This document shows, piece by piece, positions 35,221 to 62,299 of a stretch of 64,000 bases of DNA; the first letter of the stretch is position 1, and every line of letters starts with the position of its first letter. Below the pieces are notes generated by a model, which saw only the letters and a program-made list of their open reading frames with translations, did not search any database and was not told where the DNA came from. The stretch is from positions 39,014,756-39,078,755 of the forward strand of contig JAPTYO010000009.1 of the NCBI GenBank assembly GCA_036873135.1, given 5' to 3'. Both the position numbers and the translations under genes were made by a program. The DNA comes from Clarkia xantiana subsp. parviflora (taxonomy: Eukaryota; Streptophyta; Magnoliopsida; Myrtales; Onagraceae).

Positions 35221-35498
35221 TAAAAGCTTTAGTAGGTTGAATCATTTGTTGATTGATGATTAGGGATTACAATGTAAGAGGTAAACTATATATATACTAG
35301 GTGATAAGGATCACCAACTAGGACTAACTATCCTATGTGCCTAACTTGGTGCACCAAGGTGCATATACCATGTAACATGTACTACATGATATATGCACCA
35401 TATAATAGCCTTATACAATCATCTAATGACATGATGGAAGTAAATGCAAGTGTAAGTAACAAGATGCAATGTGAGCATATCAACTTATATAATCTATA
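35221..35498 (-). repeat. 5' LTR of Copia C (278 bp)
   Basis: Plus strand TAAAAGCTTTAG ... TCTATA, followed by ACCTT. Three differences from the 3' LTR. Confidence 0.93.
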
Positions 35499-35900
35499 AC
35501 CTTTAAACACAATTAATTAGCCCTTGATCATATAATTAGAACCTTAAAGCACGGAGAGGTCGGAAATAATCTGAGTGTGGGAGTCGGAAAATGGTACCGG
35601 GGCCCTTGGGGGTGGGGAGAAAATCCGACCCCCAAGGGTAGGGGTTGGGTGTGACCACCCAACCCTTCCCTAGGGGAGATAGGGTTGGCCAACCCTATCT
35701 CCCCTAGGGGAGATCGGGTTGGCCCACCCGATCTCTCTTAGGGGAGGTCAGGTGTGGCCACCCGACCTCACCTAGGTGAGTTTGCCGCGGTCTGGACGAG
35801 TATTTTTGCCTCGTCCGGACCGTTGGTGTTTCCGCGGGGTGTTAAGGTCGAAGTTTCAATTTATAATCACAACGGGTTCAAATTGGGCGTATATCCATCA
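35499..35900 (-). repeat. 3' LTR of F, second part
   Basis: Begins with the second copy of ACCTT and ends TATATCCATCA. It contains the cluster of inverted repeats (35603-35776). Compared with the 5' LTR it lacks about 35 bp near 35865. The tract next to it (35901-35914) is GACTCGGGGGCATG on the minus strand. Confidence 0.9.
35603..35776. repeat. Ladder of five inverted repeats in the F 3' LTR
   Basis: Consecutive hairpin-forming palindromes: arms 35603-35613/35628-35638; 35642-35651/35656-35665; a perfect 42-bp palindrome 35668-35709 centred on TTGGCCAA; about 35707-35740; and about 35741-35773. Stems carry related cores (GATAGGGTTGG, GATCGGGTTGG, GGTCAGGTGTGG). The same ladder is in the 5' LTR at 53531-53705. 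Confidence 0.9.
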
Positions 35901-36850: not shown

Positions 36851-37483
36851 CCGGACCCGTCTATCACATCGGGTCGGGTTTTCCGAAGGTCCACTCTTTT
36901 CCTTTCCGTTACCGTATAAAAAGCCGAAATTTGAATTGCCGCTATTTGATTGAGTGCGTGATTGCTGTAGATAGTCGTTTGTCCGGAGATAATTTTTGCT
37001 CGTTTAGACTATTCCCGCTTGAATTTGACGTCGTGGCACCATTTGGATGTTGATTTCCATTGAGGGGCTTAATCGTAATTTTGCCCGGGAATTGGTTTTT
37101 TGGTTCGAGCAAAATTGCCCGATTTTGCCGTTGTAGTGTCCCTAGCACGTGTTCATTGCCTTCATTGGGTGCCTTTGAGTCTTTGGTTGTTGTTTGTCGG
37201 GTACCGTGGTATGCCTAGTCTTTCCGGAAATCTTCTTATCTTGACACCTGTCGTGCCGTGACAGGTATTATACTCGTGGTGGTGTCCCCGTACACAAACT
37301 TGGCAGAGGCGCTATATCCTTCGAAGGATGAGTAAGTTTCTCTTTCTTTCTATTCGTCGCGTTGCTTTCTTTCCTGCCATTAGTTCGGTGTCGGATTTTG
37401 AGCCGTATACTGAGCCGGGGTGTTAGTCGGAGCCTGATTCGAGCTTAGAATTTCTCACTGCCTTTGATTTAGGTCTCGCTGCT
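36851..37483 (+). promoter_or_regulatory. F: putative promoter and first exon region of the antisense ORF
   Basis: A TATAAA box is at 36915-36920. Near 37330 an ATG is followed at once by GTAAGT, resembling exon 1 plus donor of the aORF in A and G, and a CCATTAG acceptor is near 37378-37384. The frame from there into 37484 has one TAG (37424-37426). I cannot fix the true exon 1 phase. Confidence 0.4.
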
Positions 37484-39579
37484 TTGTCGAAGAACTACCT
37501 GACTAGGTCCGACTATAACGAGCATGTTACCTTAGGTGACATTTGTCCCTTAGATGAGCCTTTATATCCCTTCCTTCCTTCTTTGGGAAACACCCGCCAG
37601 ACAGTGACAGAGCCCCCCAGGGGGAAGGTTGTTGTTTATCCTTCCCAGATTCGGTATGGATTGCGGCTGCCTTATTGCGATGAGCTTGTAGAATTGAGTA
37701 GATTCTTTAGGATCTCCCCTGTGAACCTTGCCCCCAGTGCTATCCGCGTCTGGGTGGGCTTCCGGGTGTTATGTCACTGGTACTCCTGGAAGTATTCATT
37801 GGTTTTGTTCCGGTGCTTCTTCAGATTTCAGTATCAGAAGAAGGTAGGCTTCGTGAGTTTTGTGACTCGCTATCCGTCCCTCAAAGATTCCCAATTTGCT
37901 GATTTCGGGTTGAGCGGGGTTGAGTGGGATACTTCTCTTCGTTTCGTGGCCTGGAGCGATCACTCGGCGAGCCACTGGGCCAAACATTTTTTCTTTATCA
38001 CGGATCGATATGTTACCTGGCCGGTTTTGAATGAGGATCGATTAGACGGCTGGCCTGCCTTTGGGGAGTTCTCTTCTGTGGACTTAGAGACTATGAAGAC
38101 CATCTATGAGAGCCACAGGACCCAGTCTTACTGCCCTGTGTCCTTGGTGACCGAGACAGATCTCTATGAGGCAGGGATTAGTTTGACTCCTGACTCCGGG
38201 GGTTCGGTATGTTACTTAGTCTTCTCATCTATATTTATTTTATGTTTTTCCCTTGTAGGTTGGTTTCACGGGAAAAAGTATAATGTGCAGGCAGCACCGG
38301 TCGATATGAGCAAGAGGAGGGCTCCCTCCAGCTCTACTCCGAAGAGGTCCCCTATGCCTGGGAAGACTGCTGGGGCCTCTGGTATACTTCCTTCTTTCTT
38401 CTCTTATGGTATACTTGTGTTTTTCTTACGCTGTCTTCCTTGTATTGTTAGGGCACTCTCCTTTGGTGACCGAGAGAGTCGTCTCTGTGGGCAAGGGCTC
38501 TGGACCTTCTAAGTCCAAGTCACGGAGGTCCGACTCTGAGGCCGGGGCCTCGGCTGTCAAGAAGAAGAAGGCTGCAGATCCTCCTCCCCCTGGTGTTCGT
38601 TCCCCGACCCTGTCTCGCGACAAAGAGATAGTGGTCGAAGAGGTGCCTTCCCAAGCTGATAAAGGGAAGCGCCTTACTAATGAGGATATCGTTGGATCTG
38701 AGTGGACTCCTTTTGCTGGGTTGAAGGAGTTTCACTTTGACAGCGGTTCCTCCTTGCGTACCCCGGAGGTTGGCATTCGTGTGCTTCGCGGTGCCATCGC
38801 CCCTGGTGATCATGCTCCTCAGCCTAAGTCTCCTAGGGAGACCCGGCATTTCGTTCAGGGTGTGTTATCCCGTTATGTACCTGTGAGTGGTGTCTCTCTT
38901 CCCTTTTTACTTTCATGTGGTTGCTTTTCCAGTTACTTATCCCTTGTTGAATTTTCAGGGTATGTCCGACATGGTGAACATGTCATCCCTTGCGCTTGAG
39001 CTGTCAGATGAAAAGAAGGCTCTTGAGGATAACCAGGTATCCCTGAAGGCGGAGCTTGCCACTGCCTCTGAGAAGGCTCGCCTGTCTGACTTGCAGATGC
39101 AGGAGCTTAGGGACCAGGTTTCTCTACTTGAGACTACCGTGGGTAGTTTGCGCCGTGAGGCTGATGTTGCATCGTCACTCCATGCTGAGGAGTTGAGAAA
39201 TCTTGAGGCAAGGTGCCGGGCGGAGGAGAGAGCTTTTGCGGTATCTGAGTACAAAGCTTCCTTTGCCTTTACTGCTGATTACAGCGTTCGGCTGAACCAA
39301 GAGATGAACCAGTTTGGCGAGTACCCTGTTGATCATATCTTCCGTATTGATCCCCAGTTTCTCGTCAATGATCTGGGTGACTTTGGACCATATGCTACTG
39401 GTTATATGGCCGTTCTTAGGGGTCAAGCCGCCGTTGCTGATGAGCCTGCCCCTGCACAGGTGGATGCTATACCTGTTGATGTTGATAGTTCGGGCTCTTC
39501 CTCCTCTTCTTCGGTCTCTGTTGGTGGTTCTTCCTCAGAGGGTCAGGACTATGAGGACTCTCCAGCAGGCTCTGGTTGA
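37484..39579 (+). CDS. Antisense ORF of F, gypsy-type 'putative transposase_28-like' protein
   Basis: Two introns with clean phase, 38382-38451 (GTATAC...GTTAG) and 38883-38958 (GTGAGT...TTTCAG), join a frame of 649 codons ending at 39577-39579. The N-terminal domain has YGLRLPYCDELVELSRFF and APSAIRVWVGFRVLCHW, matching the A and G aORFs. A basic region (KSKSRRSD, KKKK) follows, then a coiled coil (LALELSDEKKALEDNQ, about 38970-39260), an FAFTADYSVRLNQEM region, and a Ser-rich acidic tail. The last intron is at the same place as in A and G, just before the coiled coil. The frame shown starts at TTG; a TAG upstream (37424) separates it from a likely exon 1, so it may be slightly damaged. Function unknown. 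Confidence 0.7.
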
Positions 39580-40452
39580 TATGCTGATATCACTTTATCT
39601 TTGTACATATGACTTTACTTTTCCTCCCCTTTAACGGGTTGAGTGTTTCTCCCCTTGATGGGTCGAGTTCATCTTGGGATTGCTATACTTGAGATTTTGT
39701 GTTGGTTTCCTTCTTCGCATGGTTATGTTGGCGGTGTGTGAAACACTTGCCTTTGGTGGTGGTATGCATGGTGTGTGGGACACCTGCCTTTTGATGGGTA
39801 CTTCGTATGCTTCTGTATATATTCCTTTGACTATGAACTCTTCTTTTCTTTGTGATTTCCTTTACTTAACTCTCTTTTGTGTTTTCCTTCATATTGTACC
39901 TGCTATCTCATCAAGAAAAAACGTTATGTGTTCTTCATACAACTTTACTTTGCAATTATTTTCTCATGGGATCCTTCTTAGTATGGTGCAATGATCTCTT
40001 CCGATACCCTCTAAAGATACGCTCTTGGGGGCGTCGAAGGTCGTAGTATAAAAACTACTCTCAAGATACGCTCTTGGGGGCGTCGAAGGTCGTAGTATAA
40101 AAACTACTCTCAAGATACACTCTTGGGGGCGTCGAAGGTCGTAGTATGAAAACTACTCTCAAGATACGCTCTTGGGGGCGTTGAGGGTGTTGTTGACTTG
40201 AAGTCATATCTGCGTAAGGATAACATAATGATTGTATCACCACCTTCTTTGAAAGATACGTTTGAGTAACTTCTACTTCTTTAGGAGCATTCATGCTTTA
40301 TGTACACTTGGGGTGCCTTGGATGGATCCAGACACCCTTTGGAGGAAATCAAAGATACTTGTAGAGTCGGAGTAACTTCTTGAGTTCTCCTTCTCAAAAG
40401 TTGTTTCTGGAAAACTCAAAATGCTTGAACATGCAAAGTGCTGAAAATTAAA
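39580..40452. repeat. F: region between the convergent ORFs, with a 49-bp tandem repeat
   Basis: Four units of 49 bp start at about 40014, 40063, 40112 and 40161 (AAGATACGCTCTTGGGGGCG core). They lie between the aORF stop (39579) and the polyprotein stop (40453), as the arrays of Z, A, B and G do. Outside the repeat (39580-40010 and 40200-40450) I see no gene. Confidence 0.85.
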
Positions 40453-43400
40453 CTAAGGATATGGGGTGGTGAGTGTGTCTGTTGCCACGTACTCCTTTAG
40501 GCCTCCTTTGTAAATCATCTCCTCCACTTCTATCTTCAACACCATGTAATCATTAGTTTGATGCCCCCAGGTCCCATGGTACTCACACCATTCCTGTGCA
40601 TCTCTTCCTAGGAAGGCCTTGCCCTCCTCCTTGCATGTGGGTAGCTCTTCCTTGAGGTACTTCTGAAAAATTTCTTCTATCTTCACTGTAAGGGGTGTGA
40701 ATTTGAAGTTTACACCTCCTTCCAGTGTGTCAGTCTCTCTTCCTTCTTCAAGGACTTCTTCCCATTGCCCTATCTCTTTTGCGAACGCCTTGTCCAGCCT
40801 CTCTTTGAGCTCCCTCATTGTGCTTGTCATGACCACCTCATAGAGCCCTCCATATGCTTCAAATGAGGTTGGATGCAAGTTTCTAAGGAAGGCCCTTACG
40901 ACCTCTCTTGTTGTGATGTCCATGCTTGCACCATAGTTGAAGAATCTGTTAAAGTAGCTTAATATGGACTCCTTTGGCATTTGCTTGACGTCGTCTATAT
41001 ATCGGAAACCCTTTTCAATGGATTCCCTTGTTCTCTTTCCTTCTGCATTCTCTGGCTGCCAAGGTATGCTTGTTACCTTTACAGCCTTACCTATCTGCTT
41101 CTTCTTAGCTAGCCCCTGAAAGAACTGCCTACTCAAGCGGAGTATAACTCCCTTTTTCATCTTTCCCTGCCTTAGCCTTTTCATCACCTTTTCTTTGTCC
41201 TGGATGGCCCCAGTCATGACCATAGCCACTGTGTCTGACTTGTGAGATTCACGTCTCATGGAGTTGACGTAGCATTGCCTTGCAGTGCGTTGATCACCCA
41301 AGACTTCCCCAATTCTGTTTTCGGTGATATACTTCAGTTTCTGATGCACGGTAGATGGCACAATTTCATATGGATTTATGGTTGTTCTTCCTAGGATCCC
41401 GTTGTAGGCTCCCAAGCTTTCAACCACCATGAAGTTGATATTCACTCTCAGCTGTGTCCATCCTTGGCCCATGGTCACTGGCAGGGTTATCATTCCTAGG
41501 GGATAACTTGTTGCCCCTGAGAAGCCAACCAGAGGGAAGTTGACTGGTTTGATGTCTGCCTTTGTTTTTCCTATCTCTTCCAGGACCCTCAGGCTTAGGA
41601 GGTCTGCAGAACTGCCCCCATCTACCAGTATTCTTTTTACATCGAAGTTATTGATGTCCATCGTGATGACTAAAGCATCATCGTGCGGGAAGACAATATG
41701 ACTCTTGTCCTTCTCCGAGAACTCAATCTTCATCTCCTCTCCTTCTCTTGGTCTCTTTCTCCACTTTAGTACTGAGCTCAGCTTGGATGCATAAACCTCC
41801 CTTGCATTAGCTGTTGGGCCACCTGATGCCACTCCTCCATGTATCATGTTTATAGTCCCCCTCTGGTTAGGTGGGGGATTATAATCTACCTTGTCTTTGC
41901 CTTTATCCTTGTATGATGGCCCTAGCTGTATACTGTTGCCACCGTGATCAACAAACTGTTTTAGCTCCCCTCTTTGGATGATATTGTTGATACTTAGATT
42001 CAAGCTAAAGCATTCGTTCGTATCATGACCATATGCCTCATGGTTATCACACCATCTATCCTTGTGTGTCCCTACCATTGGCGCTCTCCATCTTACGGGG
42101 GGAGACCATAATTTCTGATTTCTCATCTCTCTTAGGACCACTGCTGGGGTGGTGTTCAATGGTATGAACTTGATAACATTTATATCCATAGCCTTCAGTG
42201 GCTCACCCATCTGATTTCTTTGTTGAGGCGGACGCCACTCCTGTTGCCTTATGGGTTGAGGTGCCTGAGGTGGCTTTCCCTTATTCTGCTTTGTGTTGTC
42301 CTCATTTGCTGCTTGAATCTTGGATTTCTTACTCACCCTGTGCCTCTCTAGGTCTATATGAGTTTTCACTCTCCCTGCTAGCTCCTCTAAGGTGCTTGCT
42401 GGTTTCTTGGCCATCTTTTCTGCCAATGTGGACCCGAAGCGGCCTAGGTTTCTTATGAAGGCTCTTATTATTTCACCTTCGGTGATGTCGCCCTGTATGT
42501 CTGCTATGTTCTGGTTGAACCTAGTGTAGTAATCAGCCAAAGATTCATCATTTTCCTGCTTCACATCATCTAGGGAGCCTGTTCCTTTTAGTAGCTTCCT
42601 TTCTCCTAGGTATCTCTGAAGAAACTTTGCCTTTAGCTGCGCCCATGAGTGGATGCTTTCAGTAGGTAGGCTAAAGAACCAATGTGACACCACCCCTGAT
42701 AGGGTGTTTGGAAATAAGAGTGCCTTGTAGCGGTCATCAGTAGTTCTCCCGAATAGAGAGGCTTCATGCTGTTGAATGTGCTCCAAAGGGTCTCCCTTGC
42801 CATTGTACTTTGCTATCTGTATTGTATGCAAGGAGTCTGGCACTTTGTTCATTTCCAACTCCCTCGCGAAGGGGTGGTTCGTGTTGTCACTCAGGAAGTG
42901 CAGTCCGTTTCTCTTTGACTCACTTATCTTCCTCACTATCATGGCTTCTATCTCCTCCGGGGTAATCATCACCGGCGTTGGAGTATAGTCTCTCTGATAT
43001 CCTCCATAGTTATAAACTGGGCTTGCTGGGATCCCTTGTCCATGCTGGTACGGACTGTAGGCGTATCCCTGATATCCCTGTTGGGTTACTTGGTGGAATT
43101 CTTGCCTCCTTGGAGGTCTTGCCTGTCTATCTGCCCCCAGCGGGGTGTATGCCCTGGCGTCCTGCTGTGTCTGTTGCTGCCTTGGAGGCACAAACTGCTG
43201 CCTTCCCTCTGGGGGTGGCCTTTGGTTATCTCTTCTTTGTTCTTCTCGCTGCCCTGTTGGAGGGTGCGAGTGGTGTTCTTCTTCTGGGACTTGTTCTTCG
43301 TCATGAACTTCTTCCTCTTCATGCTGGTGTTGCCTTCCTTGCCTGTTCCTCAGGGTCTCTCTATAGGCTAGTAGCTCATCCAACGCGCTCATCAACCCCG

Positions 43401-43734
43401 GAGTCACTGTATGTGCTCCTTGTGAGTATGCGGGCCTTGTGTTGGTTATGTGGGCGCGATTGTCGTTCCTTTGAGCCGGCATCCCATATGGATATCCTTG
43501 AGGTTGTGCCTCATAGTAGTATCCCTGAGGAGGTGCCGTGTATTGAGATGGCACTCCTTGTTGCTCCCCTTCTCTTTGTGGCCTCCTAGCCAATGGAGTT
43601 GAGGCTGTGGAAGACTCAGCCCCAGCTGGACGTGAAGGTCCTCCTTCCTGGTTGTTAGGCTGGGGTGCCTGTGAGGTTACCTGAGGCTCTGGGTGTACAT
43701 GCTGTTTCTCTGGGTTAGGCTGCCTTGATGGAGG
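40453..43734 (-). CDS. F polyprotein: Gag, zinc motif, protease, second Gag half, second zinc motif
   Basis: Open on the minus strand from the G junction to the stop at 40453. With the first 25 codons on the far side of G (52951-53024) it is about 1,116 codons in one frame. In order: a Gln/Pro/Glu-rich N terminus; Retrotrans_gag core (GDPLEHIQQHEASLF, FFSLPTESIHSWAQ, RAFIRNLG; about 42380-42830); zinc motif WCDNHEAYGHDTNEC (about 42012-42056); protease LVDGGSSADLL (about 41610-41640); a conserved CYVNSMRR. Where other elements begin reverse transcriptase, it instead has a second Gag C-terminal half (DDVKQ, SYFNRF, VVRAFLRNL; about 40790-41010) and a second zinc-like motif WCEYHGTWGHQTNDY (last Cys changed to Tyr). 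No reverse transcriptase, RNase H or integrase follows. Confidence 0.88.
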   Translation of the reverse strand, partial: PPSRQPNPEKQHVHPEPQVTSQAPQPNNQEGGPSRPAGAESSTASTPLARRPQREGEQQGVPSQYTAPPQGYYYEAQPQGYPYGMPAQRNDNRAHITNTRPAYSQGAHTVTPGLMSALDELLAYRETLRNRQGRQHQHEEEEVHDEEQVPEEEHHSHPPTGQREEQRRDNQRPPPEGRQQFVPPRQQQTQQDARAYTPLGADRQARPPRRQEFHQVTQQGYQGYAYSPYQHGQGIPASPVYNYGGYQRDYTPTPVMITPEEIEAMIVRKISESKRNGLHFLSDNTNHPFARELEMNKVPDSLHTIQIAKYNGKGDPLEHIQQHEASLFGRTTDDRYKALLFPNTLSGVVSHWFFSLPTESIHSWAQLKAKFLQRYLGERKLLKGTGSLDDVKQENDESLADYYTRFNQNIADIQGDITEGEIIRAFIRNLGRFGSTLAEKMAKKPASTLEELAGRVKTHIDLERHRVSKKSKIQAANEDNTKQNKGKPPQAPQPIRQQEWRPPQQRNQMGEPLKAMDINVIKFIPLNTTPAVVLREMRNQKLWSPPVRWRAPMVGTHKDRWCDNHEAYGHDTNECFSLNLSINNIIQRGELKQFVDHGGNSIQLGPSYKDKGKDKVDYNPPPNQRGTINMIHGGVASGGPTANAREVYASKLSSVLKWRKRPREGEEMKIEFSEKDKSHIVFPHDDALVITMDINNFDVKRILVDGGSSADLLSLRVLEEIGKTKADIKPVNFPLVGFSGATSYPLGMITLPVTMGQGWTQLRVNINFMVVESLGAYNGILGRTTINPYEIVPSTVHQKLKYITENRIGEVLGDQRTARQCYVNSMRRESHKSDTVAMVMTGAIQDKEKVMKRLRQGKMKKGVILRLSRQFFQGLAKKKQIGKAVKVTSIPWQPENAEGKRTRESIEKGFRYIDDVKQMPKESILSYFNRFFNYGASMDITTREVVRAFLRNLHPTSFEAYGGLYEVVMTSTMRELKERLDKAFAKEIGQWEEVLEEGRETDTLEGGVNFKFTPLTVKIEEIFQKYLKEELPTCKEEGKAFLGRDAQEWCEYHGTWGHQTNDYMVLKIEVEEMIYKGGLKEYVATDTLTTPYP

Positions 43735-44437
43735 TGTTGGATCACGGCGGAACTCCGGTACGGTCTTGACGGCGATCCGAGCTCCTTTGCTCCACGTAAT
43801 CCTGCAAGAGGGGATAGACCGGGCGGTGACCCAGAATCCCTCTCCGATGCTTAAATGAGTAACTCGTATGAACTGGCAAGCAGGAATCTCAAAGAGTGTA
43901 TCTCAAAAACGTAATCAGATCTGAGGTAACCTCTGCCCTTTTATAGGCGGAGAGGTACCTCAGTTACCTGGTGAACCGTTGGGGTGGTTAGCCCATATTC
44001 CGCGTATCTCGGGCACGATCCCGCCTATCTAGGCCATGATCTCGCTTATCTCGGCCACGCCCCGCGTATCTCGGCCACGCTCCGCGTATCTCATCCACGC
44101 TCCGCGTATCTCGGCCACGCCCCGCGTATCTCAGCCTCAACCTCTGATAGCAAGTCCTGACCAATATCGGGGACTCCAGAGTTATCTCATTGTGTCACCG
44201 TTCGGGGCCCCTCGTCATCGTGACAGGGCCAATCATCCTCAGGGATTCATCATCGGGGCCTACTTAAAGGCATTTCATCGGGAGCGTCCAGCTCACCTAT
44301 CGGGACCTTTCATCATCGGGACCTCCCTCTGTCGGGACCCTTCGCCTTGGCCTTCTTGTCCTCCTTTTAGGGCCTAGTGGGCCTATTCACCGTTTCCTCG
44401 CCGTCAAAGGGCCTAACGGCCATAGCGAAACCCATCA
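43735..44437 (-). repeat. 3' LTR of G (703 bp)
   Basis: Plus strand TGTTGGATCACGGCGG ... CCCATCA, then the polypurine tract (reverse of TCTTGGGGGCAAA). It has U3 units of the CGCGTATCTCGGCCACGC type (about 43998-44140) and the conserved block at 43838-43854. Confidence 0.95.
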
Positions 44438-44997
44438 TTTGCCCCCAAGACATGAGGGACTTACAGTTCATCGTGTCTTTCAACTCCCGACCTCCCGACA
44501 TCGGAGTCGGGGACATTTCCCTTGGTACAGTCACTTGATACAAATATTCTCATTCACGTTTCCTCGATGCCTTGAGGATAACCACTAAATCCAAGAAGAC
44601 TCCTCGGTTCCCCAGCCATTAAATGCAGCAGATAACGAAGCGACGTCTTTGGCACCCGTGCCTGATTTTTCGCGCCTGCTTTTTCTGAAAAAGTGCTTTT
44701 CAGGCCGTTTCATCATTACACCCGTTGCCATTATGCACGTTTTATCTCAACGGCTCAGATCAAAACGCTTCGACTTCGACGATTCAGATTAGAACGTCCT
44801 TTCGACTGTCCGCTTCGCCTATAAAACCCTAACCCTAGGCACAGTTTCCCTTTTACCGTTTCCGAAATTTCAAAAGCTCTCTGCAACTCTGAGAACTCAA
44901 GCTCTGCGATTTCGAAGACTCAAGTGCTTCTCCGGCCTCCTGTTATCCGATCAACTTTCCGGCAACCTTCAGATCATCCTTCCTACCTCGAGTCATC
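44438..44997 (+). promoter_or_regulatory. G: promoter region of the antisense ORF
   Basis: TATAAAA at 44820-44826 in TTCGCCTATAAAACCCTAACC, about 170 bp before the ATG at 44998. Its context matches the aORF TATA boxes of B and Z. The leader between is rich in CT and CAACTCT motifs. Confidence 0.6.
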
Positions 44998-47730
44998 ATG
45001 TCTGGTAAGGATTTATTCTTCGTTGCTCGTATATCTTTTCGTTCATCCTTGCTCGTTCGTAATTTTCCGAAAAACCCAATGCGCCTTTCCTTGCCATGGC
45101 TGATTTCAGACAGTGGATCCAGTTCCGAGGGGAGAAAGCCCTTCAATTTCGACTATGCTCTCAACGAGATTTCCAGCACTGCTTACGATGCAGCTCTTCG
45201 AGAGGGATGCATCACCTCTACCTGGGAACCTCGCTTCCCATATCCTTGGCCCCGCCTCTCGAGTAACCTTGAGGTTACTCGTCCCCGGAAAGGGGAGGTA
45301 TTTGTCTCTACGGGGCAAATATCAGCGAGGATTCGATTCCCCTTCTGTGGCAACCTTGTTGAGATGTGCCAACACTACAAGACGCATCCAACCACTTTCT
45401 CTCCCCACGCCATCCGCCTATGGAACGCCTTCTAGGTCCTCTGCTTCCGACAGAAGTGGGTTTACAGCCTCAAGCTCTTCAGAACCTTCTACGGGATAAA
45501 GTGCAACGAGGCAGGGGTTTGTGCCTTCTACCCCCGGATGCCCAAGTGGAACAAGACGCAACTCCCGTTGAGCAGCTGGACCAGTGACACCTGGAAGGTG
45601 GTCAAGGGTCGGGGACTCCTGGTCGACACAGGGTCCGATAACAGTGGGTGGAAGAGGAGCTATTTCTTCATCCAGAACTCCTCGATCCCGTGGCCCCGAT
45701 GGGAGGTGGAAGCGGACTCTCCTCCCGCTTACCACACCTACTCTGATGAAGACTTCCAGACTCTTCATCTCATCCAGCTCTACCGATGGGGGGAGTCCTA
45801 TACTCCCCTTGATGCCAATTCTCTCGTGGATCGGGACCTGGTGAATGCCGGGATCCGACTCCTCGACATAGTCTCCGGGGGTCAACTCTTCGACAGCCCC
45901 TCCAATATGGTTTCTTGGGTAACGTCTCTAATCTTTGTTTTTTACTGTTTGCAGCTAAGAAGGTATCCGTGCTGACCAATCTGATCCTTAAGCAGGGGGA
46001 GACCGATGGTGTCCGCCCTACGCGGAAGAGGAAGTTAGCCAAGAAGGCTGTTGCTCCGTCGGGATCTCCCTCCTCGGAGAGGCCAAAGCGGAGCCGCGTG
46101 GAGGTGGACAAACTCTTCGATGTCCAGACTGCTGAAGAAGGTAAAAAGCTCCGCCTCGCTATTAAATCGTACAAGAAGCTAGTTCCGTAGGAGTTGATCC
46201 CTTCGACCATGGAGGCCCGCATCGCCGATGTTAAACGTGTCTCCGAGGGGAAACTCCTCGTGTCCTGAAGGCGGGCTACTACAACTACCGCGGGAAGGAC
46301 CAATATGTTTCTCGGCGCATCGTTTGGTGTAAGGGTCCTAACGAACTTCCTGATTATGTTTCTGAAGCCTCCTCTCGTCCTCTAGGTGCAGGTCACTCGG
46401 GAGCTCCGTCGGGTGCTGGAGCTTCAGCAGGTGCACCATCTTCAGCAGGGGCGCCTCCTTCAGCAGGGGCACCACTTTTCTCTGGTGGAGAGACCCCGAC
46501 CGGCGATCAATTTCATTGGGTGGAGAACCTGGACTCCTCCGAGGAGACTGATGAGGGCGGCTCCCTTATCCATCGTCGGAGGACGGGGCAGTCCCCATTG
46601 AAACACACCTCCAAGGGTCTGCCCCCCTCGCCTTCTTCACAACAGCGACAGCCGTCGCCCATCCACGACTTCACTCCTTCCCCAGCCCGGGGCGAGTCGG
46701 AGGCACGCCCCTCCGCGACTCGAGTCGGCCCTTCTCTTCTCCCCCTCGACGGGAGTTTTTACAAGGTCTTGGACCCCGCGCAGAAGGATGCTCCCTGGAC
46801 CCCGATCCAAACGCTGCAAGGGGTCCAGCTCCGACAGGGGGACACGTACCCCGAGCTGGCTCCACATCTGCTAGCAGGCTCGATCCTGCCCACTATGAGG
46901 TATCCGATTTCCTTAGATCGGGAGGACATCCGCCGGGATGTTCAAGAGATGTCCATGCGTCGGATAGAAGTAAGACTTTCACTTTTCTCTCCTTCATCAA
47001 TAAGACCGGTTGCTCATCTGCTAACACTTCTCTCCCTTCCTTCGCAGGAGATGGGGGACATCAACCGTTTCCTGGGGTACATCTTCGCCTTCGAGGAAGC
47101 CCTGGAGCAGGAGCGGGCTAAGGGGGCTCCCGCAGTCATAGCTAACCTTGAGGAGGATCTCGCGGCCTCCGAGTCTTCGCGGGGAAAACTGGCCAAGTAG
47201 CAGGCCATCCTCGACCGAAAGACTCGGGACCTCCAAAAGCAGGTTCGTGACTTCGAGGGGCTCCTGAAGCGGGAGCGGCAGGAGCGGCGAATTGCCGAGG
47301 ACAAACTTGTCCTTGAAAAGAAGGCTCTGGGGAAGCAAATCGCTGGGGTTCCTGCGCAGCTGGTCGCGGCCGAGACCAAAGGCCGGGAGGATTATCGGAG
47401 GTCCGAAGACATCCAGGCAGATGCAGTGAAGTTCTGCAACGCGGAGGTGGAGAACACCCTCTTCAACGCAGTCGAGGAACTCCACCTGGAGTATGGCGAC
47501 GCCATCGACTTCGACAAGTCTCCATCTCTCGCTCCCTTCGCGAAGAAATAATTTGCCCTCTAGGAGGAGAGTGATGAGGGGAGCACCCCCGCGGTTGTTG
47601 AAGGCACGACGGAACCTCCAAGTGCTGACGCCCCGATAATCGACCCTCCAGGGGCTGAACCTGTGGAGCCTTCTGCCACAGATCTTGTGGACCGTGCTCC
47701 CGCTGATGCCGCCGACAAGGACCAAGCCTA
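44998..47730 (+). pseudogene. Long antisense ORF (aORF) of G
   Basis: Exon 1 ATG TCT G (44998-45004), intron 45005-45109 (GTAAGG...TTTCAG), exon 2 from 45110 (SGSSSEGRKPFNFDYALNEI). Domain motifs IRFPFCGNLVEM and FSPHAIRLWNAF match A. A later intron fits 46970-47047 (GTAAGA...TCGCAG). The Pro-rich middle and Glu/Lys coiled coil follow, and the C terminus is EPSATDLVDRAP ... KDQA, ending at about 47730. Stops: TAG at 45433-45435 and near 46188, TAG near 47198, TAA and TAG near 47550-47562, mostly where A has CAG. A frame problem lies near 45920. Once a full-length protein of about 700 residues; now decayed. Confidence 0.8.
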
Positions 47731-48316
47731 AATGCTTTATCTTTAGAGTCCTTGTATTTTTCCTCATTTTTTTAATCCTCAGGCCTTTGAGCCCTCATAA
47801 ATATCAGACTATCGTAGTTCCGATTTTCCATTGCACTTCTCAAAGCGACTTTCAACACATCACTTAAGACGATTTAATCGTGCCAACTAAGGCAATTCAA
47901 TCCGCATCACTTAAGACGACTTAACCACCTGCACCACCTAAGGCGACTTAATATCGTGCACCACTTAAGGCGACTTTTCCAACACTTATAATAAATCCAA
48001 GAATCATGCATCACTTAAGATGACTTAATCTCGTGCATCACTTAAGACGACTTTATCTCGTGCATCACTTAAGACGACTTTATCTCGTGCATCACTTAAG
48101 ACGACTTTATCTCGTGCACCACTTAAGGCGACTTTTAAACAACACTTAGAATAAATCTAAGAATAATCTGATCGGAAGCAACCTCTTTATTCATTGATGT
48201 CACAAAACTTGCTTACATCGAATCAAACGATAAATAACTTACACCACTTAAGGCGATTTTACATCGGGCACCACTTAAGGCGACTTTTCATCGGGCACCA
48301 CTTAAGGCGACTTTTC
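47731..48316 (-). repeat. Tandem-repeat array of G
   Basis: From about 47872 to 48312, units of the reverse complement of AAGTCGCCTTAAGTGGTGCA, with TTAGATTTATTCTAAG spacers. It lies between the aORF stop and the pol stop. Confidence 0.93.
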
Positions 48317-49404
48317 TCAAGCATGACATTTCTTCAAGTGTTCGCCACTAAAAGAATGCTTCAATACTCTGCCATCGAGGTCTTCCAACTTGTACGCATT
48401 CGGAGCTGGCATCCCCACGACCTTGTAAGGTCCTTCCCATTTTGGTGACATCTTGTTGATCCGATCCAAAAGGGTAAACTCGTTGCGACGCCAAACCAGC
48501 TCCCCGACAAAGAATTGTCGGGACTTAACTCGCCGATTGTAATACCTGGCCGTCGCCAAATGCATTCGAGCCTGGACTTCGTCGGCTTCCCACCTCTTCT
48601 CTTCGAGCAAGTCCAAATCCAGACGTCTAATTTCATCATTCGTCAAAGGCTCATAATATCTCATGCGATGGGACACCACAGCTACCTCCACCGGAGCAAC
48701 AGCCTCCGTGCCATAAACAAGGCCAAACGGAGTCTCCCCAGTTGATCGTTTGGGTGTCGTTCTAACAGCCCAAAGCACGTTTTCCAGCTCGTTCAGCCAT
48801 TTGCCCTTCAAGGCATAGACCCTTTTCTTCAGGCCATCCATCACTATTTTGTTGGCTGATTCCACCTGGCCATTAGTCTGAGCATGATGGACAGAGACTG
48901 TCCGATGCTCGATGTTCAACTCCTCCAAATACTCCTTCACTTGAGCCCCGTTAAACGGTGGACCATTATCGCTGATCACCACCTTGGGAATCCCGTATCT
49001 GGATACAATATGAGTCTGGAGAAACTTGACGATCTGGTTCCCCGTCGTCTTGGCCAACACCTTAGCTTCTATCCATTTCGAAAAATAATTGATAGCAACC
49101 AGCAAATATTTACACTGACCTTGTGCCTGTGGGAGAGGTCCCACCAAGTCGATGCCCCACTGCACGAAGGGCCAAGCACTCTTGATGGACGTCAGATTAG
49201 CAGCCGGAGCCACGATATTCGGGGCATACCTCTGGCACGCGTCACAGGATCGGACCAACGTCGTCGCCTCCTTGCTCATTGTAGGCCAATAATAGCCCAA
49301 GTTCAACACTTTCCTCATAATGGATCGGGCCCCTTCATGACAAGCCGCGACCCCTCCATGCACCTCCCTCAGGATTCGACTTGCTTCAAGTACGGAGTCG
49401 AGAA
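48317..49404 (-). pseudogene. G: integrase
   Basis: 348 open codons (49363-48317) with HEGARSIMRK and SCDACQRY (zinc domain), WGIDLVGPL, SDNGPPFNG and QTNGQVESANK (D,D-x35-E complete), then LVWRRNEF and SPKWEGPYK. The best integrase in the window. A deletion and frame change near 49370-49405 separate it from RNase H. Confidence 0.92.
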
Positions 49405-52196
49405 CTAGCCCTTCTTGTATAGCTGATTGTCCAGCATCACGTAGTTAACCGCAATCCGACGTATCCTATCATCTACTACTTCATTATCGGGGACTGCCCC
49501 CGTAGTCAGGTACGCGACTATCGGGGTCATCCAAGTGGGCTCCTCCTCCGATCCTGCTTCAATAGCACACACCTCCGACGGGTTGGTGGTCGACAAGATC
49601 ACCTTTTCCAAGAAGTGCACATTCCGGTTTTCCTCCAAGGGTGCCCCCAAGGCAAATTTTTTCAAGGCATCCGCTTCCACGTTCTCTTCCCTCGGGATCG
49701 CCTCAATGTCGAAACTTTTGAAGCTCTCTTTCAAGACTTGCACCTCACGAAGGTACTTTCTCATCATCGGGCTCTTTACCTCATATCGCCCTTGGACTTG
49801 ATTCACAATCAAACCCGCGTCACACTTTACTCTCAAGTGAGCAACTCCCGTACCTTTGGCAATTTTCAGGCCTGTGATAAGAGCCTCATACTCAGCTTCG
49901 TTGTTCGTGGCCCTAAACGTTAAGGCCAAAGCATATCGAAGGGGCTCACCCCTGCCTGGTGGTATCAGCACGAACCCTGCTCCTGACCCATATGAACTCG
50001 AGGAGCCATCCGTGTACATCTCCCAAGTATTCTCCTCGTTTGGCTGTTCTGATTGCTCTGCCATCTCTGGTTGTTCTGCTATCGGGACCTCCATGGTTAC
50101 CCCCTCTACAGGGCCCGCTTCTTCCAGATCGGGGGCTGTAGATTCTGCTATGAAATCCGCCAACGCCTGGCCCTTAATAGCCGTTCTCGGAGCAAAGTGT
50201 ATGTGAAACTCACTAAACTCGACTGCCCATTTCACTAATCTCCCCGACGCATCAGGTCGGTTCAGAAAATGCTTCAGAGGCTGATTCGTCAGCACAGTAA
50301 TCTCATGCGCGTGGAAGTAAGGCCTCAGCTTCCGAGCAGTAATAATCAACGCAAAGAGATACTTCTCAACGGCGGGATAATTCATTTCAGATTTGACAAG
50401 CGCCTTGCTTACATAATAAACGGGGACTTGATTACACTCAACAACCTTCACTAACACAGAGCTAATGGCAAATTCAGAAACAGCCAAGTATAGATAGAGC
50501 GGCTCGCCTGGGACCGGTTTCGCCAACGGCGGGAGGGTGCGAAGGTGCTGTTTGAGTGCCTAGAACGCCTCTTCACACTTGGCAGTCCACTCAAACTTCT
50601 TGTTGGCCCTCAACAGTTCAAAAAACGGCATGGATCGGTCACTTGCCTTAGATAGGAAGCGATTCATTGCAGCCAGTCGGCCATCAGCACTTGCACCTCC
50701 CGATGATTTACCGGAGACTACATCTCCTCGATCGCCCTCAGCTTCTCGGGGTTCACCTCAATTCCTCTTTGACTCATCATAAACCCCAAAAACTTCCCCG
50801 AGTGGACTCCGAAGGCGCACTTAGTCGGGTTCAAGCGAACCTGATGAAGCCTCATCCGCTCAAACGCCGTAGCTAGGTTGTGCACATGATCCTCAACTTG
50901 TCGGGACTTCACCAGCATATCGTCCACGTAAGCCTCCATGGTTTTCCCCAGCATATCTACGAACAGCTTGTTCACCATCCGCTGGTAGGTTGCCCCGACA
51001 TTGATCAGTCCGAAAGGCATGACATCATAATGATAAATGTCACTATCGGCATAAAAGGCAGTGTGGGGGGCATCCTCCTTAGCCATTTTGATCTGATTAT
51101 AGCCCGAGTACGCATCCATGAAGCTCAACAGCTCATGTCCTGACGTGGCATCCACCAACTGGTCGATTCTCGGGAGCGGGTAACAGTCCTTCGGGCAAGC
51201 CTTATTCAGGTCCCGGAAATCAACGGACATCAGCCATATCCCATTGCTCTTCTTCACCAGCACCGGGTTAGCGACCCAAGTCTGGAATCGGAGCTCCTTG
51301 ATAAACCCAGCGTCGAGCAACCTGCCCACTTCCTGCTGGATTGCGATCATCTTGTCTGCGCCCATCGGACGCCTCTTCTGCGCGATAGGCTTGATCGCGG
51401 GATCGATCTTCAACTCGTGCACGATCACATCGGGGCTGATTCCTGGCATGTCACTCGGGGACCAGGCAAACAGCTCCTTGAACTCCTTCAGTAGATCGAT
51501 CAATTCTCGGGCTGTCTCCTCAGCCAGAGCAGACCCGATTTTCACCTTCCCCTGAGGTCCGTCAATCTCGACCTCCTTAAAATCCTCCACAGGGGCGGGA
51601 CGCCCAAACTCCTCTCTCGGATCAACATCGGTCTGGAGGATAGTCATGGCCTCCCGTCTTTTCCTGCGGGTGGTATTAATATAGCACCTCCTGGAAGCCA
51701 CCTGGTCGGGGGTAATAGGACCATTAAGGGGAATGGTCCTATGCTGCACGGGTCCTGGCCCATCGACCACAAATCTCTCTGACTGATCGGGCTCCTTACC
51801 CTTGTCCTGGCTCCGAGGTTGGGCCTCTTGCACATTCTGAACCACTGCTGGTGGGGGCACTTCCTCCCTTGGTGGGGGCACCTCCTCTTGTCTCCTCGCA
51901 GCCTCTCTCCGATCTAAGAGAGCCTCCACGGCCGCCAAAAACATCGGCATGGATTCCGCCACAACCTTCGTCAGGTCCGCATTTGGAGGAGCCTCCTGCT
52001 CCCTATTCTCTTGGTGCTGAGCAGCATCTTCGGGGACTTAGTTGTGCCCCCCTGTCTGGGAGACCTCAGCAGGGAGATTCTGGTCCTCAGCACGCTCCGA
52101 TGGTGAATTCAGAGTCGTCCCGGCAGGATGACGGGAACCACAAGACTGTCCTTGTCTTCTTCGCTTGCCAGCCGCCATTGAACGAGTAGAAGTCAT
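49405..52196 (-). pseudogene. G: short Gag start fused in frame to reverse transcriptase and RNase H
   Basis: Starts at the ATG at 52196 (MTSTRSMAAG region, like B). A TAA lies at 52038-52040, then the frame is open from 51962. It reads TIPLNGPITPDQV and passes directly to ASRRCYINTTRR, so all of the Gag core, zinc motif and protease are gone. Reverse transcriptase is complete (PFGLINVGATYQ, YVDDMLV) up to a TAG at 50718-50720; a one-base deletion near 50680 and a second TAG near 50561 follow. RNase H (MYTDGSSSSYG) is open from 50526 to a TAG at 49405. The joint preserves frame. Confidence 0.9.
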
Positions 52197-52213
52197 ATTA
52201 GCCTTTTGTCACG

Positions 52214-52231
52214 TTCCCACAGACGGCGCCA
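52214..52231 (-). other. Primer-binding site of G
   Basis: TGGCGCCGTCTGTGGGAA on the minus strand, one base inside the 5' LTR; identical to A and B. Confidence 0.85.
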
Positions 52232-52232
52232 A

Positions 52233-52950
52233 TGTTGGATCACGGCGGAACTCCGGTACGGTCTTGACGGCGATCTGAGCTCCTTTGCTCCACGTAATCC
52301 TGCAAGAGGGGATAGACCGGGCGGTGACCCAAAATCCCTCTCCGATGCTTAAATGAGTATCTCGTATGAACTGGCAAGCAGGAATCTCAAAGAGTGTATC
52401 TCAAAAACGTAATCTGATCTGAGGTAACCTCTGCCCTTTTATAGGCGGAGAGGTACCTCAGTTACCTGGTGAACCGTTGGGGTGGTTAGCCCATATTCCG
52501 CGTATCTCGGGCACGATCCCGCCTATCTAGGCCATGATCTAGCTTATCTTGGCCACGATCCCGCCTATCTCGGCCACGCTCCATGTATCTCAGCCACGCT
52601 CCGCGTATCTCGGCAACGCCCCGCGTATCTCAGCCTCAACCTCTGATAGCAAGTCCCGACCAATATCGGGGACTCCAGAGTTATCTCATTGTGTCACCGC
52701 TCGGGGCCCCTCGTCATCGTGACAGGGCCAATCATCCTCAGGGATTCATCATCGGGGCCTACTTAAAGGCATCTCATCGGGAGCGTCCAGCTCACCTATC
52801 GGGACCGACTCTGTCGGGACCTTTCATCATCGGGACTCCCTCTTTTGGGACCCTTCGCCTTGGCCTTCTTGTCCTCCTTTTAGGGCCCAGTTGGCCTATT
52901 CACCGCTTCCTAGCCGTTAAAGGGCCTAAAGGCCATAGCGAAACCCATCA
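52233..52950 (-). repeat. 5' LTR of G (718 bp)
   Basis: Plus strand TGTTGGATCACGGCGG ... CCCATCA, then GGAGG. Conserved block (reverse) at 52336-52352. It has an extra 15 bp or so (GACTCTGTCGGGACC region) relative to the 3' LTR. Confidence 0.95.
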
Positions 52951-52955
52951 GGAGG

Positions 52956-53024
52956 TATAGGCTGTCTCTCTCGCCTATTGCCCCTAGGTGGGCGGTTATG
53001 TCTAGACGCTAAGCTATTCGTCAT
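52956..53024 (-). CDS. First codons of the F polyprotein
   Basis: ATG at 53024-53022, about 35 bases inside the F primer-binding site; 23 codons to the duplication, then it continues in phase at 43729 across G. It is basic and Arg-rich. No stop. Confidence 0.75.
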
Positions 53025-53057
53025 CGCTCTTGTGATTGCCAGGCTTTCTATTCGAAA

Positions 53058-53073
53058 CACACGGACGGCGCCA
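53058..53073 (-). other. Primer-binding site of F
   Basis: TGGCGCCGTCCGTGTG on the minus strand next to the 5' LTR of F. The first ten bases are identical to those of A, B and G, and the rest diverges. Confidence 0.75.
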
Positions 53074-53075
53074 AG

Positions 53076-53863
53076 TGTTAGGTTATAGGTTTCAGGTCAA
53101 CGAGTCGCCGGCCTAAATCCTATTCCTCACTGGTGAACTAGCGGATCCTGTGTTTCCTGAGTTCGGTCGTTCTGATCCGTATCCTTCTGCCCTTCTCCTT
53201 CTCTTCTCGACGTGCCCTTAAGAGGGGCAATATCAAGCACGGAGGGGGGGTGGTGCTTGATGTACCCTCTCCGATGCTTAAGTCAGTACATTTCTTTCTA
53301 GAGAGATAAAGCTAGAGAGATGTCAGAGCTAAATTGCACAATTAGCCAAGATGATCAAATGAATGGTGGAAAGGTTGTATTTATAGGCAACGGTGTCATT
53401 AAGGTGGCTTAATGACATCGTTAACCTTTAAACACAATTAATTAGCCCTTGATCATATAATTAGAAACTTAAAGCACGGAGAGGTCGGCGGAAATAATCT
53501 GAGTGTGGGAGTCGGAAAATGGTACCGGGGCCCTTGGGGGTGGGGAGAAAATCCGACCCCCAAGGGTAGGGGTTGGGTGTGACCACCCAACCCTTCCCTA
53601 GGGGAGATAGGGTTGGCCAACCCTATCTCCCCTAGGGGAGATCGGGTTGGCTGACCCGATCTCCTCTAGGGGAGGTCGGGTGTGGCCACCCGACCTCACC
53701 TAGGTGAATTTGCCGCGGTCCGGATGAGTATTTTTGCCTCGTCCGGACCGTTGGTGTTTCCACGGGGTGTTTGGGTCGAAGTTTCGATTTATAATCACTA
53801 ACGGGGTGATCGAAATGAAACGATTTGGAAGTCAACGGGTTCAAATTGGGCGTATATCCATCA
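53076..53863 (-). repeat. 5' LTR of F (788 bp)
   Basis: Plus strand TGTTAGGTTATAGG ... TATCCATCA, then GAGAG. Conserved block (reverse of TTAAGCATCGGAGAGGG) at 53265-53281, TATA box (minus) at 53378-53385, hairpin ladder at 53531-53705. It preserves the uninterrupted site into which C inserted in the other LTR (GTTAACCTTTAAACAC, about 53420-53435). Confidence 0.93.
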
Positions 53864-59826: not shown

Positions 59827-59883
59827 TTTATAAACATGCAACCGTTGTCATATATTTATAGTATTGTTGTTGTGTTTTGCTGA

Positions 59884-60370
59884 GAGGGTTGCCCTTGTGG
59901 GTCTTCCCTTTTCATTTGGAAGGGTTGCCTTGTGGGTCTTCCCCTTTTCATTTAGAAGGGTTGCCCTGAGGGTCTTCCCCTTTTCTTCAGAAGGGTTGCC
60001 CTTATGGGTCTACCCCTTTTCATTCGGCAGGGTTGCCCTTGTGGATCTTCCCCTTTTCATTCGAAAGAGTTGCCCTTATGGGTCTTCCCCTTTTCATTTG
60101 GAAGGGTTGCCCTTATAAGTCTTCCCTTTTTCATTTGGAAGGGTTGCTCTTATAGGTCTTCCCCTTTTCTTCGGAAGGGTTGCCCTTAAGGGTGTTCCTC
60201 TTTTCATTTGGAAGGGTTGCCCTTATGGGTCATCCCCTTTTTATTCAGAATGGTTGTCTTTATGGGTCTTTCCATTTTCATTTGGAAAGGTTGCCCTTAT
60301 GGGTCTTCCCCTTCTCATTCGGAAGGGTTGCCCTTATGGATCTTCCCCTTTTCATTCGTAGATGACACCT
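59884..60370. repeat. Tandem repeat of H, about 37 bp per unit
   Basis: About 13 units of GGAAGGGTTGCCCTTATGGG then TCTTCCCCTTTTCATTC. It follows the H polyprotein stop (60545) in the position of the arrays in F and the Tat elements. Long frames here (for example 59864-60118) are repeat translations. Confidence 0.93.
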
Positions 60371-60544: not shown

Positions 60545-61381
60545 CTAGGTGGGTTCGAACTCTAGTTCCTTAGTTGCTATTTCCTCATCGAGACGTCCTG
60601 CATGGATTTCCTCCTCAACCTCCAACCGAAGGGCTAGGCACTTGTTGGTGCTATGCCCCCAAGTCTTATGATATTCGCACCACTCTTCCACTTCCGTTCC
60701 TAGAAAGACCCTCGGTGATTCCAAAGGTGGAGAAATTTGATCATAGAAAACCCTCTCATACGGCTCTTCCATCTCAATTTTGAGAGGTGTGAAGTGGACA
60801 GTTCATCCATCAACTAGCCTGTAGTATGCTGTCTCATCCTCCTCTTCATTTTGCATTGCTTGGGATAGTCTCTACTTGAATTCTTCCACCAACGTTATGG
60901 TAGCGATACCAATATCCCCTCCAAAATACTCCTCAGTGTCCCTTCTCAGATGCCTAAAGAAGGCTCTTACGAACTCATTCTTGGTGATTTTCAAGTCAGA
61001 TGCTGTCGTTGCTAGCCGCACAAAATAGCTTCTTATCAACTCGTCTCCCTTCTATTGGATGCCATCCATATACTCATGATTCTGGCTTATCACTCTCCTC
61101 TTTCTCTTCCTTTCTTTCTTTGCATTCAACTCTTCTATAAAAATGGTTTGTTCATGACGCTCTTGCCTCTTCCTTTTCCTAAAGATGTCTTTGGCTGCAT
61201 TTAGAAGGTTGCTTTCTGCCCCCTTTACTATGCCCAACAGTCCCTTCCATCCTTGTCCGACTCCTCTTGTAGGTTTATCCTTTGGTGCCTGTGTGAATGC
61301 TATAGGTAACCCCTGCTGCGCCCTTCTCCTCATGGCATTCAGGTAGCATTTCCTGAAAGTTGATTGGTCTCCTAACACTTT
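60545..61381 (-). pseudogene. H: post-protease linker, second Gag half and second zinc motif
   Basis: Reads RKCYLNAMRRR (as in F and the Tat elements), then a Lys/Arg-rich linker. A Gag C-terminal half follows (SYFVRLATTASDLKITKNEF then VRAFFRHL), then TVHFTPLKIEME, and WCEYHKTWGHSTNKC with the full C-x2-H-x4-H-x4-C motif. The stop TAG is at 60545-60547. In-frame stops lie near 61040, 60875 and 60803. No reverse transcriptase. Confidence 0.82.
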
Positions 61382-61559
61382 ATGCCATTCGGTGTTTGGA
61401 ACTTCATATTTTGTTGCACAGTGGATGAAACTATTCGGTTTAGGTTAATATTTGTGCGGCCTAGTATCCCGTTATGCGTGCCTAGTTCCTCCACCACTAC
61501 GAAGGTTACCTTTAGTTGGACCTGCTCTCATCCTTCGCCAAAGGTTACCGGAAGGGTTA

Positions 61560-62296: not shown

Positions 62297-62299
62297 TGA

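What the first reader, a model, noticed from the sequence alone, without database searches (positions are those of the whole stretch)
40453..53024. Non-autonomous retrotransposon F with a duplicated Gag module in place of reverse transcriptase, RNase H and integrase
The F polyprotein is open for about 1,116 codons once insertion G is skipped. It reads Gag core, C-x2-H-x4-H-x4-C motif, protease (LVDGGSSADLL), the conserved CYVNSMRR, then a second Gag C-terminal half (DDVKQ, SYFNRF, VVRAFLRNL) and a second zinc-like motif. RT, RNase H and integrase are absent anywhere between the LTRs. Gag-only elements (TR-GAG type) are known, but a protease flanked by two Gag halves is not a form I recognise. 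An intact frame implies it was maintained while mobile, so the second Gag half may do something: co-assembly with a partner particle, RNA packaging or dominant interference. That role is inference.
Basis: partly seen in the sequence, partly recalled or inferred. Interest (0 to 1): 0.88.

Follow-up and report, generated by a model that had tools for sequence, protein, structure and literature searches.

The report
Retrotransposon lineage with a second Gag
A plant jumping gene has lost its own copying enzymes and carries in their place a second, partial copy of its shell protein; a distant cousin in the same stretch of DNA has the same design, so it looks like a lasting type of element and not a one-off accident.

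Summary
F is an LTR retrotransposon on the minus strand with true ends 20714-53863 (TSD GAGAG). Two later insertions break it: a copia element (holding another element) in its 3' LTR, and G (43735-52950, TSD GGAGG) in its reading frame. One open frame encodes complete Gag, protease, the CYVNSMRR junction, a linker, and a second partial Gag (C-terminal capsid half plus zinc-knuckle-like motif). No RT, RNase H or integrase was found. Downstream lie a tandem array and an antisense ORF with Transposase_28 (PF04195), both typical of Retand-type Ty3/gypsy elements.

The main new result is a second element, K (63103-60563). It has the same order (Gag, PR, CYLNAMRR, linker, Gag2, stop) but is far diverged (gag1 54%, gag2 36% amino-acid identity). 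A nucleotide alignment of gag2 shows codon periodicity (p = 4e-5), so gag2 was kept as protein, less strictly than gag1. F is therefore not a fresh deletion derivative.

Best reading: a non-autonomous, Zeon/TR-GAG-like Retand lineage that supplies Gag and protease, borrows Pol in trans, and uses Gag2 in particle assembly or RNA capture. Self-restriction like Ty1 p22 is an open alternative. Gag2's role is inference; the host genome could not be searched.

The parts
53076..53863 (-). F 5' LTR (788 bp, TG...CA)
   Evidence: blastn against 20714-21077 and 35497-35900; TSD GAGAG at both outer ends
20714..21077 (-). F 3' LTR, outer part (split by copia H)
   Evidence: 96.4% identical to the matching part of 53076-53863
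35497..35900 (-). F 3' LTR, inner part (split by copia H)
   Evidence: 95.3% identical to the matching part of the other LTR, plus the exact LTR end
53045..53075 (-). primer binding site region of F, core TGGCGCCGT, the same core as G
   Evidence: read; primer tRNA not identified
53022..53024 (-). putative start codon of the F frame; the leader frame is open from here to insertion G
43735..52950 (-). insertion G (9216 bp): LTR pair plus RT, RNase H and IN in separate ORFs, no gag core or PR; interrupts the F frame
   Evidence: LTR pair; TSD GGAGG; Pfam; gag-PR deletion
42913..43734 (-). F polyprotein N-terminal region, rich in P, Q and E
   Evidence: no match in 53864-64000
41947..42912 (-). 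gag1: complete Gag (PF03732 plus C-terminal part plus zinc knuckle)
   Evidence: tblastn pieces 54% and 30% to K, 32-44% to E1 and E2
42010..42051 (-). gag1 zinc motif C-x2-H-x4-H-x4-C
   Evidence: sequence
41347..41700 (-). aspartic protease, approximate limits (LVDGGSSADLL at 41596-41628)
   Evidence: PR region 54-55% to E1 and E2, 41-55% to K in four pieces; no Pfam hit
41251..41274 (-). CYVNSMRR junction, the last stretch shared with the PR-RT region of E1/E2
   Evidence: only the first 14 codons of the junction query align to E1 and E2; CYLNAMRR in K
41014..41250 (-). linker, open in F and K, hardly alignable between them
40453..41013 (-). gag2: C-terminal capsid half plus zinc-like motif, then stop
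40546..40587 (-). gag2 zinc-like motif C-x2-H-x4-H-x4-Y (last Cys replaced in F; CHHC in K at 60638-60679)
40009..40188 (.). tandem array, 49-bp unit x 3.7, 264 bp beyond the gag2 stop
37427..39579 (+). antisense ORF region (apparently spliced), Transposase_28 in 37427-38512
   Evidence: PF04195 E 4.3e-7, 30.5 bits over cut-off 26.2; homologous to antisense ORFs of E1 and G; splice sites read by eye
60563..63103 (-). element K: decayed second example of gag1-PR-CYLNAMRR-linker-gag2
60563..61090 (-). K gag2, 36% aa identity to F gag2, intact CHHC motif, stop close to the same place
59885..60358 (.). tandem array, 37-bp unit x 12.9, about 200 bp beyond K gag2

Best explanation
F and K belong to a non-autonomous lineage of Retand-type (Ty3/gypsy, Tat clade) retrotransposons. 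In their common ancestor, everything after the protease-RT junction (CYxNxxRR) was replaced by a linker and a second, N-terminally truncated Gag. [Shown: anatomy, shared order and breakpoint in two diverged elements, protein-level constraint on gag2, no RT/RH/IN found. The single common origin is inferred from these.] The element makes its own Gag and protease and depends on a Pol-encoding relative for reverse transcription and integration, as is held for Zeon and Cinful in maize. [Inferred.] Because gag1 and gag2 sit in one frame, gag2 is made one-to-one with gag1. The likeliest role is that it enters the particle through its C-terminal capsid half and adds an RNA-binding knuckle, filling the place normally held by Pol and helping capture F RNA or partner Pol. 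[Inferred, weaker.]
For: Complete element with 5-bp TSD. Intact frame: 0 stops in 274 codons of 40456-41277, 0 of 2000 shuffles. gag2 is homologous to gag1 (z 24) and to K gag2 (z 46; 0 of 1000 shuffles each). K has the same order and junction and a stop just after gag2. Nucleotide alignment of F and K gag2: 94% in phase, differences by codon position 76/165, 59/166, 100/165, Fisher p 3.8e-5 for position 3 against 1+2. Retand marks: Transposase_28 antisense ORF, tandem array, 4,552-bp 3' region, 788-bp LTR and 7,959-bp internal region without G, all within the published ranges (PMC11963269). PBS core TGGCGCCGT shared with Pol-bearing G. Split Gag/Pol precedent: Cinful/Zeon and 25 maize families (PMC8547701, passages). 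A TR-GAG, a copia one, transposed in Arabidopsis (PMC8704663, passages).
Against: Only two elements, both in one 64-kb window; no further copy found in the collections that could be searched. K is decayed and cut short, so its 3' part and any antisense ORF cannot be seen (none matched). No partner sharing F's LTRs was found: the LTRs of E1, E2 and G match F's over a 24-bp block and otherwise hardly at all. Nothing here tests assembly or RNA binding. F gag2 has lost the last zinc ligand, which argues against an essential zinc-binding role in F itself. Constraint rests on one pair with saturated synonymous sites, so no dN/dS figure is reliable; gag2 is less conserved than gag1 and PR. The linker comparison has almost no power (22-23 in-phase columns per codon position).
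Confidence: 0.6

Rival explanations
1. Gag2 is a self-encoded restriction factor like Ty1 p22/p18: an N-terminally truncated Gag that joins growing particles and blocks or tunes assembly, either of F itself (copy-number control) or of competing relatives. (This differs from the best explanation only in gag2's role, so the odds overlap.)
For: [quoted passage not shown] gag2 sits behind a protease that could release it.
Against: It is fused one-to-one to full Gag, whereas p22 comes from a separate sub-genomic transcript. F needs a partner's Pol, so harming partner particles could harm F. No functional data.
Confidence: 0.2
2. The ancestor was autonomous with gag-PR-gag2-RT-RH-IN, and F and K each lost Pol later; gag2 then belongs to a whole autonomous clade, not to a non-autonomous lineage.
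For: Only non-autonomous or truncated members could be seen here, and the host genome was out of reach.
Against: Both F and K end in a stop just after gag2 and both run into a tandem array; no Pol remnant was found in either. Of the 8 public homologues of gag1-PR, 3 match gag2 only at the knuckle of their one gag and 5 not at all; 7 of the 8 carry an RT domain and one (P0007) ends soon after PR.
Confidence: 0.15
3. Gag2 has no specific job: it is a passive C-terminal filler kept open because a frame must continue past the protease for folding or protease activation.
For: The linker is open in both F and K (0 stops in K's 92 codons) although it hardly aligns; gag2 is less conserved than gag1 and PR.
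Against: Codon periodicity and the EWCEYHxTWGHxTN motif shared by both gag2 copies point to constraint on its own sequence. P0007 shows that a gag-PR protein can end soon after PR.
Confidence: 0.12
4. F is an accident: a single recombinant that joined two Gag fragments, with no evolutionary history.
For: Template switching makes such chimeras; G in the same window shows an in-frame gag-PR deletion at an 11-bp repeat.
Against: K has the same design at high divergence.
Confidence: 0.03

Closest known systems
Retand lineage (Ty3/gypsy, Tat clade), including its non-autonomous members (PMC11963269)
   Same: Antisense Transposase_28 ORF, tandem array, long 3' region, LTR and internal size, 5-bp TSD
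   Different: Its table of 63 clusters marks GAG as present or absent, and I saw no second GAG in the parts read (abstract, passages, section 6, first part of section 11); its mining needed an intact RT, so F-like elements would have been missed
Zeon (Gag) / Cinful (Pol) pair of maize (PMC8547701)
   Same: Gag-coding, Pol-less element, presumed to be complemented in trans; Cinful-1 is placed in Retand (PMC6317226; PMC11963269)
   Different: Zeon is described as coding for GAG; no PR-Gag2 tail is mentioned in the passages read
TR-GAG elements (PMC8704663, passages)
   Same: LTRs and a Gag frame without RT/RH/IN
   Different: TR-GAGs carry a single ORF encoding GAG; F adds protease, gag2 and an antisense gene. 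The one seen to transpose is a copia element
Ty1 p22/p18 restriction factor (PMC8458377, abstract)
   Same: N-terminally truncated Gag encoded by the element itself
   Different: p22 comes from a sub-genomic transcript within GAG and is identical to Gag's C-terminal half; gag2 is an old diverged relative of Gag fused behind PR
Window elements E1 (3003-14521) and E2 (23088-31759)
   Same: gag-PR-CYxNxxRR homologues of F (PR 54-55%)
   Different: Followed by RT/RH/IN; gag2 matches only their single gag

Membership tests
Retand lineage | Antisense ORF with Transposase_28 (PF04195) near the 3' LTR | tested here: met
   E 4.3e-7, above Pfam cut-off
Retand lineage | Long region before the 3' LTR (published 2,933 to about 6,560 bp), about half with tandem arrays | tested here: met
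   4,552 bp with a 49-bp x 3.7 array (PMC11963269)
Retand lineage | RT clusters with Retand RT | not testable with these tools
   F has no RT
Retand lineage | Second RNase H (aRH) between RH and INT (PMC6317226, passage) | not testable with these tools
   F has neither RH nor INT
[quoted passage not shown]
   PR, gag2 and an antisense ORF are also present
Non-autonomous Gag partner (Zeon type) | Gag present, Pol enzymes RT/RH/IN absent | tested here: met
Non-autonomous Gag partner (Zeon type) | Pol partner with shared LTR signals in the same genome | tested here: inconclusive
Ty1 p22-like restriction factor | Gag C-terminal half without the N-terminal half | tested here: met
   by sequence only
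Ty1 p22-like restriction factor | Made from an internal transcript | not testable with these tools
   no transcript data
Ty1 p22-like restriction factor | Inhibits particle assembly in trans | not testable with these tools
   needs an assay

The most novel reading that the evidence does not exclude
A long-lived class of plant retrotransposons has swapped Pol for a dedicated truncated Gag (Gag2) that works as a trans-acting factor on particles: either a built-in, p22-like brake, or a device that loads F RNA and a partner's Pol. If so, self-encoded truncated-Gag control evolved independently outside yeast, and as a fused module.
Probability: 0.25. Interest if true: 0.82.

Novelty: new variant of a known kind. 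Interest (0 to 1): 0.6.

Why it matters
Non-autonomous retrotransposons are often read as leftovers of deletion. Two diverged elements with the same Gag-PR-Gag2 design and protein-level constraint on Gag2 suggest a lasting strategy in which Pol was traded for a second Gag. A survey anchored on RT cannot see such elements, so they may be overlooked. It also gives a concrete test of whether truncated-Gag interference, known from Ty1, exists in plants.

Tried and rejected
Simple RT deletion: rejected, since K has gag2 in place of RT. gag2 as the gag of another nested element: rejected, since it is in frame with PR in F and lies in the same place in K. Linker as a diverged capsid N-terminal half: no support (830 of 1000 shuffles reach the score). 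Chance open frame: rejected. dN/dS: synonymous differences near saturation (pS 0.69-0.92 over the 22 segments, dS infinite in 19 and 1.9-3.2 in 3), so I used codon-position counts on a nucleotide alignment instead. The segments there were chosen from the protein matches, which favours conserved stretches. I ran seven segments; besides those in the main text, the gag1 C-terminal stretch gave 42/104, 48/104, 63/103 (81% in phase), PR C-part 20, 15, 47 of 71, PR middle 27, 17, 49 of 81, and gag2 knuckle part 23, 16, 36 of 57.

Led nowhere: AlphaFold models of linker-gag2 and of gag1 with 5 and 4 sequences (mean pLDDT 40.9 and 40.6), so no fold search was made; PDB profile search with the gag1 alignment (0 hits); protein database with gag2 (none of 2693 candidates at E<=0.001; none of 966 at E<=0.01); viral contigs (no match); Pfam on gag2 and on PR alone (nothing above cut-off). 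A control search with gag1-PR found 8 proteins, 7 with plant names, at 25-36% identity (only the 7993 candidates sharing most words were scored), so the database holds plant elements but this search found nothing close to F. Host species not identified. Papers (10 searches, all used): 'duplicated gag' and 'gag duplication' with retrotransposon gave 0; 'second gag' gave 1, by its title off topic, not opened; a search for elements lacking reverse transcriptase gave 1, on mammals, not opened; six phrases such as 'two gag domains' and 'tandem gag' gave 11, of which I opened two (one passage unrelated, the phrase not found in the other); a six-term search gave 2, judged by title and abstract start. 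The library is limited, so absence from print is not shown.
Full report
What is there. The window is a nest of plant LTR retrotransposons. F lies on the minus strand. Self-comparison of the window and reading of the ends put its LTRs at 53076-53863 and at 20714-21077 plus 35497-35900; the latter is split by a copia element, H (about 21074-35498, with 278-bp LTRs), which itself holds E2 (23088-31759). F's outer ends carry the 5-bp duplication GAGAG. G (43735-52950, duplication GGAGG) sits inside F's frame. Without G, F's internal region measures 7,959 bp (subtraction of coordinates).

The frame. 40453-43902(-) is open for 1149 codons, the first 56 of them in G's LTR. The leader is open from the ATG at 53024-53022 to the insertion site, and the codon phases on the two sides agree by arithmetic, giving about 1,116 codons. 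The order is: N-terminal P/Q/E-rich region; complete gag1 (PF03732, E 9e-16); CHHC knuckle; protease with LVDGGSSADLL; CYVNSMRR; linker; gag2; stop. Against the Pol-bearing elements E1 and E2, similarity runs through PR (54-55%) and stops after the CYVNSMRR junction (14 codons aligned in each). In E1 and E2 the frame goes on to RT from there; in F the linker begins instead.

Gag2 is real. BLASTP of the first part against the last part: 55 of 218 columns identical, E 6e-14. Shuffle test: z 24, 0 of 1000. It covers the second half of the PF03732 stretch and the knuckle, not the first half; the linker is not detectably Gag (830 of 1000 shuffles score as high). gag2 is about as similar to E2's gag (z 26) as to gag1 of F (z 24), so the duplication or acquisition is old, or gag2 evolved fast; these data do not decide which.

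A second example. K (63103-60563, minus) has gag1 (54% over 196 columns, then a weaker piece at 30%), PR in pieces (41-55%), CYLNAMRR, linker and gag2 (36% over 185 columns) in the same order, with stop codons and frame changes. Its gag2 keeps an intact CHHC motif and ends in a stop close to where F's does. No RT, RH or IN match (E<=0.01) was found in 53864-64000. K is broken at about 63389 by other sequence (read), and copia-like sequence lies on its far side, so its ends are not visible.

Constraint. Synonymous differences between F and K are near saturation. In nucleotide alignments of matched segments, differences by codon position are 76/165, 59/166 and 100/165 for gag2 (94% of columns in phase), and 81, 49 and 121 of 196 for the first part of gag1; Fisher p for position 3 against 1+2 is 3.8e-5 and 7e-11. 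The linker gives no signal (p 0.80), but only 26% of its columns are in phase, so that test is nearly empty. gag2 is thus constrained, less than gag1 and PR. K's stop density is alike in gag1 (7 of 364) and gag2 (3 of 176), as expected of decay after insertion. Limits: one pair, saturated, one member decayed, segments chosen from protein matches.

Lineage. Between gag2 and the 3' LTR, F has a 49-bp tandem array and an antisense, apparently spliced gene whose first long ORF matches Transposase_28 (E 4.3e-7, over cut-off). Related antisense ORFs occur in E1 and G; E1's scores below the Pfam cut-off (E 0.0014) and G's two tested pieces give no Pfam hit. A survey of 617 Viridiplantae assemblies describes this 3' structure as characteristic of Retand elements (PMC11963269; abstract, passages, section 6 and the first part of section 11 read). 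It reports non-autonomous Retand clusters lacking GAG, GAG and AP, or RH and INT, and I saw no second GAG in it; but it started from intact RT domains, so F-like elements were outside its reach. Retand membership of F rests on these features; RT phylogeny cannot be tested.

How it probably works. Gag without Pol has a precedent: in maize, Zeon codes for GAG and Cinful, a Retand element, for polyprotein domains, and 25 maize families keep GAG and POL in separate copies (PMC8547701, passages). A copia element with a single GAG ORF was seen to transpose in Arabidopsis (PMC8704663, passages). F should therefore supply Gag and protease and borrow Pol. F and G share the PBS core TGGCGCCGT, and the LTRs share a 24-bp block; that is compatible with cross-use but shows nothing. 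For gag2, a part in assembly or RNA capture is my first choice because it is made one-to-one with gag1. [quoted passage not shown] PMC8458377 abstract). Neither is tested.

Verdict. It is a new variant of a known kind: non-autonomous Retand-type elements, with Pol replaced by a conserved second partial Gag. With K beside it, it is very unlikely to be an accident of one copy. The odds given for the explanations overlap, since the p22 rival differs only in gag2's role.

Noticed in passing
51690-51710 in G; compare E2 24335-24346 and 26040-26051: G lacks the gag core and protease through a deletion that keeps the frame, flanked in E2 by the 11-bp repeat CGACCAGGTGG. G is thus Pol without Gag, the mirror image of F.
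   Followed up: partly
42010-42051, 40546-40587 (F); 62029-62295, 60638-60679 (K): F has an intact knuckle in gag1 and a Cys-to-Tyr change in gag2; K has an intact knuckle in gag2 and Arg for the first Cys in gag1. Each keeps one intact knuckle; it may be chance.
   Followed up: no
20714-53863: LTR divergence does not follow the nesting order: F 20 substitutions in 756 sites (two pieces), G inside it K2P 0.0335; H 0.011, E2 inside it 0.021. Small counts; LTR dating should be used with care here.
   Followed up: partly
53265-53288 and LTRs at 2760, 13861, 23676, 43838, 52336: A 24-bp block in F's LTR is 92% identical in the otherwise different LTRs of the E1/E2/G families (E-values 3e-4 to 1e-3): possibly a shared cis signal.
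   Followed up: no
62062-62295: 117-bp tandem duplication (2.0 copies, 96% matches) around the gag1 knuckle of K.
   Followed up: no
63389-64000: K is broken by what looks like another LTR starting TGTTGG; a stretch of it (63895-63977) is 77% identical to part of F's LTR.
   Followed up: no
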